Origin: Chloroflexota bacterium
Lineage (GTDB): Bacteria; Chloroflexota; Anaerolineae; Aggregatilineales; Phototrophicaceae
Reading direction: 5' to 3'
DNA length: 44,298 nucleotides
Assembly (NCBI GenBank): GCA_026709625.1
Contig: JAPOSR010000022.1
Coordinates: forward strand, 1-44,298
Position 1 is the first letter of the stretch; each line of letters opens with the position of its first letter. The notes beneath the pieces were generated by a model. The model made no database searches, was not told where the DNA came from, and worked only from the letters and a program-made list of their open reading frames with translations. Of this stretch, positions 13,170 to 29,012 are shown in pieces. Position numbers and translations under genes: made by a program.

Positions 13170-13241
13170 GCCCCCGTAGCTCAGGGGATAGAGCGCTGGT
13201 TTCCGGAACCAGGCGCACAGGTTCGAATCCTGTCGGGGGTG
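13170..13241 (+). tRNA. tRNA-Arg (anticodon CCG)
   Basis: The cloverleaf can be drawn by hand: acceptor GCCCCCG (13170-13176) with CGGGGGT (13234-13240), closing with a G-U pair at the top; D arm GCTC/GAGC; anticodon stem CTGGT/ACCAG around loop TTCCGGA, anticodon CCG at 13203-13205; four-base variable loop; T arm ACAGG-TTCGAAT-CCTGT. Discriminator base G; CCA is not encoded. It reads the CGG arginine codon. Confidence 0.95.
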
Positions 13242-26048: not shown

Positions 26049-26939
26049 ATGCCGCATTTGGCGCAAGTCGCGACAGCACGCACCGCCAAGCTCAGCGATG
26101 GGCGTCAGTTGGGATTCGTCGAGCATGGCGATCCAGCCGGGACGCCGGTTTTCTTCTGCCACGATCTGTTTGGCAGCCGCAACCTGCGCCACCCTGATGA
26201 CAGCATTCTCAAACGACTGGGCATCCGACTCATCGGCATCGATCGGCCTGGGTATGGGCTGTCTGGGCGCAAAGCCGGTCGCAGCGTCTTTGATGGCGCT
26301 GAGGATATGGAGGCGCTCTTCCGCGCGATGGAACTAGAGCGCTGCGCCGTGCTGGGTTATTCGGCTGGAGCGCCCTATGCGCTAGCCTTTGCCCATCGCT
26401 ATCCCCAGCAGGTCAGTCGCTGCGCGGTGGTGGCCAGCCTGCCGCCGTTGGATCAAGCGCAGAGTTTCCGCTTCATACATCCGGTTTATGGACGGCTGAT
26501 GCAGCTGGCGCATAGCAACCCCTGGCTGTTTCGCCTGCTGCTGCGCGGCTATCTGTTCTACGATTCGCAGCGCAGCCCCGACCAATTCATCCGTGATTAT
26601 GGCAGCTTGCTGGCGCAGGTCGACCGCCATGCGCTCAGCCAGTTGGCGCTTTTTAACCTGCGCCGCGACATCTGGGATGAGATCCGTCAAACCGGCGGCG
26701 AGACAATCGGCGATGAGCTGGCGGCATTGTCGCGCTCGTGGGGCTTTCATCTGCAAGCGCTGCGTGTGCCGGTCGATATCTGGTGGGGCGAAGCGGATGC
26801 CTATGCCGCGCCCATCGTGGGCAAGCGCATGACCGAGCTAATCCCGCAGGCCAACCTGCGCCTGGAAGCCAAAGCCGGACACCTCATCTTGTTCACGCAT
26901 TGGGAGGCGATTCTGCGCCAGTTGAATTCGCCCGCCTAG
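26049..26939 (+). CDS. alpha/beta-fold hydrolase
   Basis: Serine hydrolase of unknown substrate. The nucleophile elbow is GYSAG with Ser105, the oxyanion region is around FFCHDLFGSRN, and the catalytic His is His278 in AGHLILF; the acid is probably the Asp in GEADAY. 296 residues, no signal peptide, so cytosolic. Its TAG stop shares the palindrome CTAG (26936-26939) with the stop of the convergent aspartate kinase gene, leaving no room for a terminator between them. Confidence 0.88.
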   Translation: MPHLAQVATARTAKLSDGRQLGFVEHGDPAGTPVFFCHDLFGSRNLRHPDDSILKRLGIRLIGIDRPGYGLSGRKAGRSVFDGAEDMEALFRAMELERCAVLGYSAGAPYALAFAHRYPQQVSRCAVVASLPPLDQAQSFRFIHPVYGRLMQLAHSNPWLFRLLLRGYLFYDSQRSPDQFIRDYGSLLAQVDRHALSQLALFNLRRDIWDEIRQTGGETIGDELAALSRSWGFHLQALRVPVDIWWGEADAYAAPIVGKRMTELIPQANLRLEAKAGHLILFTHWEAILRQLNSPA

Positions 26940-28381
26940 CAATAGCTGCCCTGCCCGTTTGCGCGGTCGATCTCGGCTGTTTCCAGCGCCAGCGAGTGCA
27001 GCTCGACGACCGCCCGCTCCACATCGGCTTCTGACACCACAAAAGAAATGCTGCATTCGGACGAGCCTTGGGCGATCGCCAACACATTGATCGCGCGCTC
27101 GCCCAACAGTGAAAATACACGGCCCGCCACGCCCGGCGTCCCGCGCATGCCACTGCCAACCACCGTGATAATGACGATGTCGGAGCGGGTATCGACGCTG
27201 TCGATGGCGTTGTGCTGGATCTCGTCCCGCAGCTCGGCTTCGACAGCGACTTTCACGCTGGGTGCCAGCGGGTCGACAACAGTGAAGCAAAAACTCTGCT
27301 CGGATGAAGATTGCGAGATCATCAAGATGCTGGCACCGGCTTGCGCGGTCGCCAAAAAAGTCCGCCCGGCGATACCCGGCACGCCCAGCATGCCGCGCCC
27401 GCTGACCGTCAGCATAGACACATCGCGAATGCAGGTTACGGCTTTGATGACAGTGGCGCTGGGCCGGGTGCGCCCGCCGATGAGCGTGCCCGTATGAGCA
27501 GGGTTAAATGTGCTGCGGACGCGCAGAGGAATGCCGCGATTGACGATCGGCTGCACCGTCTTTGGGTGCAGAACCTTCGCGCCATAAAATGCCAATTCAC
27601 CGATTTCTCGATACGACACATAGGGCAGTACGCGAGCGCGGGGGTCGAGGCGCGGGTCGGTGGTCATCACGCCTTCGACATCGGTGTAGATATGCAGTTC
27701 GTCGCTATTGAGGCAGGCGGCAAAAATAGACGCGCTATAGTCGCTGCCGCCACGCCCCAACGTTGTCAGTGTGCCATCGGGCGTCGCGCCGATGAAGCCG
27801 GTGATGACGAGGACGCGGCCAGCATCGAAGGCGGGCAGCAGCTTGCGGCGGATGCGCGCTTCTGTCTCTTCCCACAAGGTCTCGGCATTCTGGAAGTTGT
27901 TGTCGGTGACGATGCAGGCATGTGAATCAACTTGCAGCGCGTCGATGCCTCGTTCGCGCAGCGTCATCGCAAGCACCCGGCTGCTCAGCCGCTCGCCAAA
28001 GGATACGATGGCATCGGTGATGCGCGGGCTGGCTTCGCCCAAGGCGCGCAGCGCCTCGCACAGCGCCAACTGCTGCTGCAAGAGTCCGCGCGCAGCTGCC
28101 AGCGCCTCGTCACGCGCCGCAGGCGAGCCGACAAGCTGATTGATGACCGCTTCGTGTCGAGACAACAGGTCGGTGTTGATGGCTTGGCAGGCAGCCTGGT
28201 CGCCCGCCACAGCCACAGCCGCCGCCTGGAGAAGCTGGTCGGTGACACCCGACATAGCCGAGACGACCACAGCCAGCTGGTGCCCCTGGCGGCGCTGGTC
28301 GCTGACAATCTGCGCCACCTGAGCGATTGCCTCTGGCGACCCGACCGAAGTGCCGCCAAATTTCAAGGTTAGTCTCGCCAT
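26936..28381 (-). CDS. lysC: aspartate kinase (monofunctional, ThrA-like regulatory domains)
   Basis: Phosphorylates aspartate, the first step to Lys, Thr and Met. ATG 28381 is chosen over an upstream in-frame ATG (28438), which lies inside the terminator hairpin; GGGGGAAG precedes it. The 481-residue protein starts with the kinase motif KFGGTSVG (about 6-13) and contains FGERLSSRV and GRGGSDYSAS. Two C-terminal ACT domains carry ISQSSSEQSFCF and IAQGSSECSISF, wording typical of the threonine-sensitive ThrA kinase, though no homoserine dehydrogenase is fused. Expression is probably controlled by the Met/Thr leader attenuator at 28411-28564. Confidence 0.94.
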   Translation of the reverse strand: MARLTLKFGGTSVGSPEAIAQVAQIVSDQRRQGHQLAVVVSAMSGVTDQLLQAAAVAVAGDQAACQAINTDLLSRHEAVINQLVGSPAARDEALAAARGLLQQQLALCEALRALGEASPRITDAIVSFGERLSSRVLAMTLRERGIDALQVDSHACIVTDNNFQNAETLWEETEARIRRKLLPAFDAGRVLVITGFIGATPDGTLTTLGRGGSDYSASIFAACLNSDELHIYTDVEGVMTTDPRLDPRARVLPYVSYREIGELAFYGAKVLHPKTVQPIVNRGIPLRVRSTFNPAHTGTLIGGRTRPSATVIKAVTCIRDVSMLTVSGRGMLGVPGIAGRTFLATAQAGASILMISQSSSEQSFCFTVVDPLAPSVKVAVEAELRDEIQHNAIDSVDTRSDIVIITVVGSGMRGTPGVAGRVFSLLGERAINVLAIAQGSSECSISFVVSEADVERAVVELHSLALETAEIDRANGQGSYC

Positions 28382-28410: not shown

Positions 28411-28448
28411 AAAAAAAGGGCGTCTGGAGGTTATCCACACGCCCTTTT
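28411..28448 (-). terminator. attenuator terminator upstream of aspartate kinase
   Basis: Minus-strand hairpin: 28448-28439 pairs with 28423-28414 (10 bp, AAAAGGGCGT with ACGCCCTTTT), then a G-G mismatch, three more pairs and a 7-nt loop; the run of seven U is 28417-28411. It ends 29 nt before the kinase ATG, so unless disrupted it should stop transcription of the gene. Confidence 0.8.
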
Positions 28449-28490
28449 GCTGTTTCGTCTGTTTCGGACTACAACAAGCGGAAACCTCCA
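28425..28490 (-). promoter_or_regulatory. antiterminator pairing in the aspartate kinase leader
   Basis: TGGAGGTT at 28490-28483 (within codons 25-28 of the leader peptide) is perfectly complementary over 8 nt to AACCTCCA at 28432-28425, which is the loop and inner 3' side of the terminator hairpin. The two helices are mutually exclusive. A ribosome on the leader stop codon (28471-28469) would cover the first strand; one stalled at codons 10-19 would not. Confidence 0.7.
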
Positions 28491-28564
28491 TGCTGCGCGG
28501 CTATGCGCATCATAGTCATCGTCATCATGGTGGTCATGCCCGGCGTCGCGCTGTCCAAGAACAT
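28469..28564 (-). CDS. Met/Thr leader peptide controlling aspartate kinase
   Basis: A 31-codon frame, ATG 28564-28562 to TAG 28471-28469, too short for ordinary gene calls. Codons 10-19 are MTTMMTMTMM: ten Met or Thr codons in a row, followed by Arg-Ile. In all it has 7 Met and 5 Thr. Met and Thr are both end products of the pathway begun by the downstream aspartate kinase, as with the Thr/Ile-rich thr leader of enteric bacteria. The predicted transcript start (near 28590) lies about 26 nt before the ATG. A good Shine-Dalgarno is not seen; ATG 28537 is an alternative start. The terminator begins 20 nt after the stop. Confidence 0.78.
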   Translation of the reverse strand: MFLDSATPGMTTMMTMTMMRIAAQHGGFRLL

Positions 28565-28597
28565 GATTTTGCCCGCTGTCTGTCAATGCAACAGGAG

Positions 28598-28624
28598 ATT
28601 ATCGCCACTCGCGCGCGGTGTCAA
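28598..28624 (-). promoter_or_regulatory. promoter of the aspartate kinase leader transcript
   Basis: Minus strand: TTGACA (28624-28619), a 15-bp spacer and GATAAT (28603-28598). The short spacer is a weakness. A second TTGACA (28586-28581) has only a poor -10 (TGTTCT) and would start downstream of the leader ATG. Confidence 0.5.
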
Positions 28625-28660: not shown

Positions 28661-29012
28661 CGGGAATGGTGAATGCGTGGATATGGCAATCAAGCCCCCA
28701 TCCCCCGGCCCCTTGCCCCCAGAACGAGGGAAGGGGAGTTTTGCCATCGCCTCCGCAGTATGTAAGCCCCTTGCCCCCAGAGCGAGGGAAGGGGGTTTTG
28801 CCATCGCCTCCGCAGTATGTAAGCCCCTTGCCCCCAGAGCGAGGGAAGGGGGTTTTGCCATCGCCTCCGCAGTATGTAAGCCCCTTGCCCCCAGAGCGAG
28901 GGAAGGGGGTTTTGCCATCGCCTCCGCAGTATGTAAGCCCCTCCCTCTTTTTGGGAGAGGGGTTTGGGGTGGGGGCAAAGCAACGCATATCCACAAAAAT
29001 CACCATTGCCCG
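28661..29012. repeat. palindromic dispersed (MITE-like) element, copy 1
   Basis: About 352 bp bounded by imperfect inverted ends: the left end (28661-28685) reads CGGGAATGGTGA then GTGGATATG, and the right end (28986-29012) reads the same on the other strand with TTTTT in the middle. The inside is CCCC/GGGG-rich with hairpins and a 57-bp tandem array. A shorter copy of the same element lies in opposite orientation at 35110-35286. It contains no gene of its own; frames through it on both strands are repeat artefacts. It lies exactly between the divergent promoters of aspartate kinase and the LamG-like gene. Confidence 0.7.
28749..28943 (+). repeat. 57-bp tandem repeat array
   Basis: Units start at 28749, 28806, 28863 and 28920: three full identical units and a partial fourth, preceded by a diverged unit from about 28692. 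Each unit carries an inverted repeat (CCCCTT...AAGGGG). 57 bp is 19 codons, which keeps frames open and makes misleading repetitive peptides. Confidence 0.9.

What the first reader, a model, noticed from the sequence alone, without database searches (positions are those of the whole stretch)
28411..28624. Met/Thr leader-peptide attenuator in front of aspartate kinase
Seen: a 31-codon frame (28564-28469, minus) with ten consecutive Met/Thr codons (MTTMMTMTMM), a terminator (10-bp stem, U7) starting 20 nt after its stop, and an 8-nt segment in the last leader codons that is perfectly complementary to the terminator loop and inner arm. A ribosome at the stop codon would mask that segment, so termination; one stalled at Met/Thr codons leaves it free, so read-through. 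Known: thr operon leaders in enterics use Thr/Ile codons. Inferred: this organism senses charged tRNA-Met and tRNA-Thr to control entry to the aspartate pathway. I know of no described Met/Thr leader for a stand-alone aspartate kinase.
Basis: partly seen in the sequence, partly recalled or inferred. Interest (0 to 1): 0.93.

Follow-up and report, generated by a model that had tools for sequence, protein, structure and literature searches.

The report
Met/Thr attenuator for aspartate kinase
In front of the aspartate kinase gene of these Anaerolineae bacteria sits a conserved tiny reading frame packed with methionine and threonine codons, followed by a predicted transcription terminator whose loop is complementary to the end of that frame, so that shortage of charged methionine or threonine tRNA would likely stall the ribosome and switch the gene on; our literature searches showed no report of such a methionine/threonine switch.

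Summary
The leader precedes lysC in 34 of 34 genus genomes, by my reading in 84 of 89 readable loci of the family, and in 7 of 14 of a second family with unrelated sequence. Within the run, codons swap between ATG and ACN while staying Met or Thr. The antiterminator pairing co-evolves: over 23 genera, permuted leader/terminator partners never matched the true ones in 2000 trials. Two more families of the class have Met/Thr leaders; elsewhere the same gene carries a SAM riboswitch or a T-box. Best reading: ribosome-mediated transcription attenuation, known in kind, with a Met/Thr specificity and a phylum for which seven searches showed no precedent. Against: no expression data, and full-length folds favour the terminator even with a stalled ribosome in 63 of 86 loci, the window's own included, so the switch would have to be kinetic.

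The parts
28596..28624 (-). sigma-70-like promoter: TTGACA (28624-28619), 17 nt, TAATCT (28601-28596)
   Evidence: TTGACA/T/G + TANNNT with 16-18 nt spacing in 33 of 34 genus loci; function predicted
28469..28564 (-). leader reading frame, 31 codons plus TAG
   Evidence: homologous frame in 34 of 34 genus loci
28508..28537 (-). control codons MTTMMTMTMM
   Evidence: columns -13 to -22 before the stop are 62-100% Met/Thr in 34 loci, with ATG/ACN swaps
28494..28509 (-). small hairpin P1 between control codons and region 2 (TGCGCATAGCCGCGCA)
   Evidence: RNAalifold pairs 63-74, 64-73, 65-72; GC to CG change in 7 of 34 at one pair; register ambiguous (a slide of +2 pairs more cells, 91.8 against 87.1%)
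28483..28490 (-). region 2, antiterminator 5' strand TGGAGGTT, inside the last leader codons
28425..28432 (-). region 3, antiterminator 3' strand AACCTCCA = terminator loop and inner 3' arm
28411..28448 (-). intrinsic terminator: AAAAGGGCGT...ACGCCCTTTT with T7
   Evidence: 98.2% of cells paired and 3 pairs with two-sided changes over 34 loci
26936..28381 (-). lysC, aspartate kinase, 481 aa, with plus-strand open frames on both sides
   Evidence: NCBIfam TIGR00657 418 bits, over its cut-off of 208.7

Best explanation
This is a predicted leader-peptide attenuator that likely controls a stand-alone aspartate kinase by ribosome stalling at a conserved run of methionine and threonine codons: when charged tRNA-Met or tRNA-Thr is scarce the ribosome would stop in the run, leave the downstream segment TGGAGGTT free to pair with AACCTCCA in the terminator loop and 3' arm, and so let RNA polymerase read on into lysC; when both are plentiful the ribosome would reach the stop codon, cover TGGAGGTT, and the terminator would form. 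Shown here: the frame, the run, the terminator sequence, the complementary pair, their conservation and their co-variation. Inferred: transcription from the TTGACA/TANNNT promoter, translation of the leader, stalling, antitermination, and control of aspartate flux. Because methionyl-tRNA is also needed to start translation, lack of methionine would give the same ON state by leaving the leader untranslated, unless another fold hides region 2 (inferred).
For: Leader, control codons, complementary segments and terminator upstream of lysC in 34 of 34 genus genomes, one strong model match per genome (33 of the 34 were in the model, G022 was not). Amino-acid-level selection: at codons -14 and -16 to -20 before the stop, ATG and ACN (all four Thr codons) replace each other across 34 leaders; 85 of 86 scored leaders have at least 2 Met and 2 Thr in the best window. 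Antiterminator: 93.2% of cells paired, 0 of 500 shuffles as high, slid versions 29-60%; alignment-free test over 90 loci: the cognate duplex beats at least half of non-cognate ones in 21 of 23 genera; genus-level permutation 0 of 2000 as good, mean -15.8 against -11.9 kcal/mol. Rewritten but still pairing segments: TGGGGAT/ATCCCCA in L035, GGAGGTC/GACCTCC in L025, gccggttgcttc/GGAGCAACCGGC (one G-U) in L048. Fold snapshots of 86 loci: with a ribosome stalled in the run and RNA made to just past the loop, the antiterminator forms in 78 of 86 (310 of 860 in mononucleotide-shuffled controls); with a ribosome at the stop it forms in 3 of 86, and the finished terminator in 86 of 86. Same gene under a SAM riboswitch (L040-L042, L199, L208, L212, L220) or a T-box (L210) in other families, so this gene is a repeated target of RNA control from the Met/Thr side.
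Against: No expression, Ribo-seq or 3'-end data. In the full-length fold the terminator wins even with a stalled ribosome in 63 of 86, the window's own leader included (antiterminator kept in 22 of 86). Shuffled controls form an antiterminator-like pairing in 36%. In the cognate test 11 of 90 loci do no better than half of the foreign partners, L086 and L088 among them (0.83 and 0.98), and the window's own pair is unremarkable there (0.43); the four f3 genera alone do not reach significance (278 of 2000). L007 has two mismatches inside the pairing segment. In A1 the antiterminator's count of pairs with two-sided changes (51 of 500 shuffles as high) and of further pair types (404 of 500) does not clearly exceed shuffles. 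A structure-blind alignment of 48 other family members pairs poorly at several antiterminator columns (16 of 48 at the worst). Five of 89 family loci lack a clear leader (L036, L133-L135, L159). The leader's Shine-Dalgarno looks weak (sequence).
Confidence: 0.88

Rival explanations
1. Thr-only (or Met-only) attenuation: only one of the two residues is regulatory and the other is filler that happens to be tolerated.
For: The E. coli thr operon leader uses Thr codons (PMC1183508 passage, notes eight ACC codons; Ile recalled). Class relatives L215 (f61) and L228 (f34) have Thr but no Met in the run, and L202 (f62) only one Met; a T-box whose specifier I read as ACC, Thr, precedes the gene in f50.
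Against: 85 of 86 scored leaders of the order keep at least 2 Met and 2 Thr in the best window, mean 3.4 and 4.7; positions swap between Met and Thr more than to third residues; other families put the gene under a SAM riboswitch, i.e. the Met side.
Confidence: 0.1
2. Nascent-chain arrest: the conserved peptide end (RGGF-LL in the genus, RG-F-RLP in many other genera) stalls the ribosome by sensing a free metabolite, as TnaC does, rather than by codon hunger.
For: The peptide end is well conserved within groups, and 17 of 45 scored family leaders outside the genus end in Pro before the stop.
Against: The conserved end codons are those that encode the pairing RNA (GGA GGT TTC), the peptide changes when the RNA segment is rewritten (L035, L048, L087), and some leaders stop at or just before the segment (L096, L114, L123).
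Confidence: 0.05
3. A constitutive upstream terminator plus an incidental low-complexity ATG/ACN repeat, without regulation.
For: ATG-AC repeats are simple sequence; there are no functional data. In one search the terminator is the best full-length fold in 63 of 86 even with a stalled ribosome.
Against: Conserved in place, frame and composition across a family and again in unrelated sequence; no other such run in G000 outside His/Asp-rich genes; co-varying antiterminator.
Confidence: 0.03
4. Translational coupling: the leader mainly passes ribosomes on to lysC by reinitiation.
For: Leader genes have been proposed to raise translation by reinitiation when close to the structural gene (PMC4833913, passages).
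Against: In the order's leader-bearing loci the leader stop lies 74-165 nt from lysC with a terminator between; that paper ties reinitiation to short distances and attenuation to longer ones (passages).
Confidence: 0.03

Closest known systems
thr operon attenuator of enterobacteria (thrL; Rfam Thr_leader RF00506)
   Same: Leader peptide with control codons for pathway end products, in front of an aspartate kinase gene, followed by an intrinsic terminator with a competing antiterminator (recalled).
   Different: Control codons are Met and Thr, not Thr and Ile (recalled); the target is a stand-alone aspartate kinase, not thrABC; no Rfam match to it at the gathering score in the window; region 2 pairs with loop and 3' arm; phylum Chloroflexota.
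trp/his/leu/ilv leader-peptide attenuators of Proteobacteria and Actinobacteria
   Same: Logic of stalled against terminating ribosome choosing antiterminator or terminator.
   Different: No 1:2 protector helix pairing with region 2 was found; specificity for Met is not among those named in the passages read.
SAM riboswitch RF00162 and T-box RF00230 upstream of aspartate kinase in other Anaerolineae families
   Same: Same gene, same presumed regulatory goal, element in the 5' leader.
   Different: They sense SAM or an uncharged tRNA directly; no translated leader. The window's genome does carry a SAM riboswitch at a metK-like gene and T-boxes at genes that read as trpE, valS and pheS (the last below the gathering score), but none at lysC.

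Membership tests
Ribosome-mediated transcription attenuation (leader peptide) | Short leader frame with control codons for the pathway's end product | tested here: met
   Met/Thr run in 34 of 34 genus and, by reading, 84 of 89 family loci; both are end products of the aspartate pathway
Ribosome-mediated transcription attenuation (leader peptide) | Intrinsic terminator between leader and structural gene | tested here: met
   sequence and fold; termination itself untested
Ribosome-mediated transcription attenuation (leader peptide) | Antiterminator that competes with the terminator and starts in a segment a ribosome at the stop codon would cover | tested here: met
   at equilibrium it is often the weaker fold (terminator in 63 of 86)
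Ribosome-mediated transcription attenuation (leader peptide) | 1:2 pause/protector hairpin that sequesters region 2 in untranslated RNA | tested here: inconclusive
   P1 hairpin lies between run and region 2 but does not pair with region 2; intermediate helix P2 not clearly above shuffles
Ribosome-mediated transcription attenuation (leader peptide) | Leader is translated and read-through responds to charged tRNA | not testable with these tools
   no expression data
Rfam Thr_leader RF00506 | Match to the covariance model at the gathering score | tested here: not met
   the window scan gave only a tRNA at 13170-13241
SAM riboswitch, T-box, lysine riboswitch | Match to the Rfam models upstream of this lysC at the gathering score | tested here: not met

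The most novel reading that the evidence does not exclude
Aspartate kinase in the class Anaerolineae is governed by a dual-amino-acid ribosome sensor, Met plus Thr, that arose or was rebuilt several times (by eye three RNA layouts: family f1; f3 with f28; f34) and trades places at the same gene with SAM riboswitches and a Thr T-box. Met would be a control codon, and since initiation also needs methionyl-tRNA, Met hunger would act through both missed initiation and stalling.
Probability: 0.55. Interest if true: 0.75.

Novelty: new variant of a known kind. Interest (0 to 1): 0.62.

Why it matters
It would add Met as a control residue of leader-peptide attenuation, show that one leader can watch two branches of one pathway, bring ribosome-mediated attenuation to Chloroflexota as a family-wide feature, and give a natural series in which one gene swaps among riboswitch, T-box and leader peptide. 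Any genome of the family can be checked by the same simple signature.

Tried and rejected
P2 helix (TTGTTG/CAGCAA between region 2 and terminator): not clearly above shuffles in any of five measures (45-254 of 500 shuffles as high), not claimed. Further copies of the element in the genus: besides 34 strong matches, one per genome, there are three weak ones (E 0.016-0.099); the best of these lies in a His/Asp-rich protein gene, the other two were not looked at. Other Met/Thr/Ile runs of 8 codons in G000: two His/Asp-rich protein genes only. Homoserine dehydrogenase and the second aspartate kinase of the genome show no Met/Thr leader (best windows 5 and 3 of 10). A family-wide structure-blind alignment was out of register at the antiterminator, so the alignment-free cognate test was relied on instead.

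Rows dropped: L007 was missed by a regular expression and is not in alignment A1 (34 rows: L001-L035 less L007); it is in the later counts. G113 and G070 were not fetched because their hits start inside the gene (126 of 154 order genomes matched, 124 loci read). The 90-locus set keeps loci with score 5 or more, stop within 200 nt of lysC and a hairpin found; L112 and L113, which have leaders by eye, are not in it. Fold snapshots and one search used the 86 of these with score 6 or more. A2 used 48 loci. In the class search (396 genomes drawn from a larger group, 287 with a match, match list cut) I read 56 upstream regions from 32 families, all outside the order, chosen one or a few per family; 38 of those 56 were scanned with Rfam. 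Of the order's loci without a clear leader, L158 and L159 were not scanned with Rfam. The pairing in f28, f34 and f62 was judged by eye only.

Literature: seven searches, judged by listed titles and abstract beginnings; four lists were capped (25 of 100, 25 of 112, 15 of 38, 15 of 22 shown). None of the listed papers was about a Met/Thr leader or leader-peptide attenuation in Chloroflexota. Passages, not whole texts, were seen of PMC4833913, PMC1262725, PMC2965389, PMC3766115, PMC4239095 and PMC1183508. The large comparative surveys of attenuation of 2004 (recalled) and 2010 (seen only in a reference list), and the downloadable leader-gene tables of PMC4833913, were not seen and could contain it.

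Full report
What is there. On the minus strand, a TTGACA-17-TAATCT promoter-like pair (28624-28596) precedes a 31-codon frame (28564-28469) with ten Met/Thr codons in a row, a terminator starting 20 nt after the stop with seven Ts, and lysC (28381-26936). lysC is an aspartate kinase (TIGR00657, 418 bits) with plus-strand open frames on both sides, so it seems to stand alone. TGGAGGTT in the last leader codons is the exact complement of AACCTCCA in the terminator loop and 3' arm.

Taxon. Close relatives of this lysC lie in MAGs titled Anaerolineae, Anaerolineales, Chloroflexi or Chloroflexota bacterium (34 of 34 loci). Family and genus labels below (f1, g1 and so on) are the tool's anonymous labels.

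Conservation in the genus. All 34 genomes of the genus have the frame, run, complement and terminator in front of lysC, the complement with two mismatches in L007. A covariance model built from 34 leaders (33 of the genus and L035; L007 not used) finds one strong copy in each of the 34 genomes, G022, whose leader is L007, included. Over 34 leaders, codons -13 to -22 before the stop are 62-100% Met or Thr; at -14 there are 21 ATG and 13 ACN, at -16 21 ATG and 11 ACN, at -18 20 ATG and 10 ACN. ATG and ACN differ at the second base and mostly the third, so the kept property is 'Met or Thr', not an RNA motif.

Beyond the genus. The order search covered 154 genomes; 126 have the kinase at E 1e-100 or better and 124 upstream regions could be read. 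A window with 6 or more Met/Thr of 10 is present in 87 of 124. Read one by one, the leader is in 84 of 89 loci of family f1 (80 with score 6 or more) and 7 of 14 of f3; it is absent from L036 and L133-L135 and degenerate in L159 (f1), and no leader was seen in the 21 loci of f2, f4, f7 and f8. In f3 the leader, pairing segment and terminator loop are unrelated in sequence (gccggttgcttc / GGAGCAACCGGC in L048, one G-U), yet pair in the same way. In three of four f4 loci the kinase has a SAM riboswitch.

Wider class. I read 56 upstream regions from 32 other families. In f34 13 of 13 have a similarly placed Thr-rich short frame, mostly with Met (score 6 or more in 9; L228 has no Met in its window); in f28 4 of 4 have Met/Thr runs (score 7-9); the single f62 locus has a Thr run with one Met and the single f61 locus an all-Thr run; the other 37 score 5 or less. 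In f34 the pairing segment matches the terminator's 5' arm instead (CCGCGAGGCGTT / AACGCCTCGCGG in L200, read), which is the classical layout (recalled). Of the 38 regions scanned with Rfam, four have a SAM riboswitch in the gene's direction (L199, L208, L212, L220) and one a T-box (L210) whose specifier I read as ACC, Thr, from the alignment.

Pairing evidence. Over the 34-row alignment A1 the antiterminator pairs in 93.2% of cells (0 of 500 shuffles as high; slid versions 29-60%), with two-sided changes at three pairs; two of its five measures do not clearly exceed shuffles. The terminator pairs in 98.2%. The alignment-free test is stronger: duplex energies of leader end with own terminator against those of other genera, 21 of 23 genera better than half of the others, mean fraction as good 0.19; permuting partners among genera never reached the true mean in 2000 trials, with all 23 genera, with the 19 of f1, and with f1 less the genus. 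In the same test 11 of 90 loci, L086 and L088 among them, do no better than half of the foreign partners, the window's own pair stands at 0.43, and the four f3 genera alone give 278 of 2000.

Mechanism model. With the RNA masked up to a ribosome stalled in the run and made to four bases past the loop, 78 of 86 loci fold the antiterminator (310 of 860, 36%, in shuffled controls); with a ribosome at the stop 3 of 86 do; the completed terminator then forms in 86 of 86. With the full RNA and a stalled ribosome the terminator is the best fold in 63 of 86, L001 (the window) among them, so antitermination would need the early pairing to persist until RNA polymerase has passed. The mask positions (14 nt from the first base of the A-site codon) are assumed.

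Setting in the genome. The same genome has a SAM riboswitch at a metK-like gene and T-boxes at genes that read as trpE, valS and pheS, the last below the gathering score (names by my reading of translations), and a second aspartate kinase near genes that read as aroB and glnA, without such a leader. Its homoserine dehydrogenase has none either.

Against what is known. [quoted passage not shown] A 2005 survey names attenuators for His, Thr and Phe and riboswitches for Met and Lys in other bacteria (PMC1262725, passages). A 2013 survey with five Chloroflexi genomes speaks of T-boxes there; the passages seen mention no leader peptide of that phylum (PMC3766115). None of the papers listed by seven searches concerned a Met/Thr leader (several lists capped); broad surveys of 2004 and 2010 could not be read. 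So the kind is known, and the specificity and phylum appear new.

Noticed in passing
window 28708-28942: Tandem array of a 57-bp unit, 4.1 copies, 98% matches, beginning about 84 nt upstream of the lysC -35 box; a similar unit may occur near a T-box locus of the same genome (L246 translation).
   Followed up: partly
L026 (G020) leader region: The TTGACA box is missing and the first codons read as the start of the neighbouring MtaB-type gene (MKVHLR), suggesting a deletion or an assembly join.
   Followed up: no
L210 (G386, family f50): T-box, specifier read as ACC (Thr), between a tRNA gene and aspartate kinase.
   Followed up: partly
L126 (G106): The antiterminator complement has moved to the 5' side of the terminator loop (GACCCCG) yet still matches the leader end (cggggtc), by eye.
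   Followed up: no
family f1 leaders outside the genus: 17 of 45 scored leaders end in Pro before the stop; slow release at Pro-stop could prolong masking of region 2 (idea, untested).
   Followed up: no
L133-L135 (g23), L036 (g3): Family members without the leader; no Rfam element at the gathering score upstream of their kinase.
   Followed up: partly
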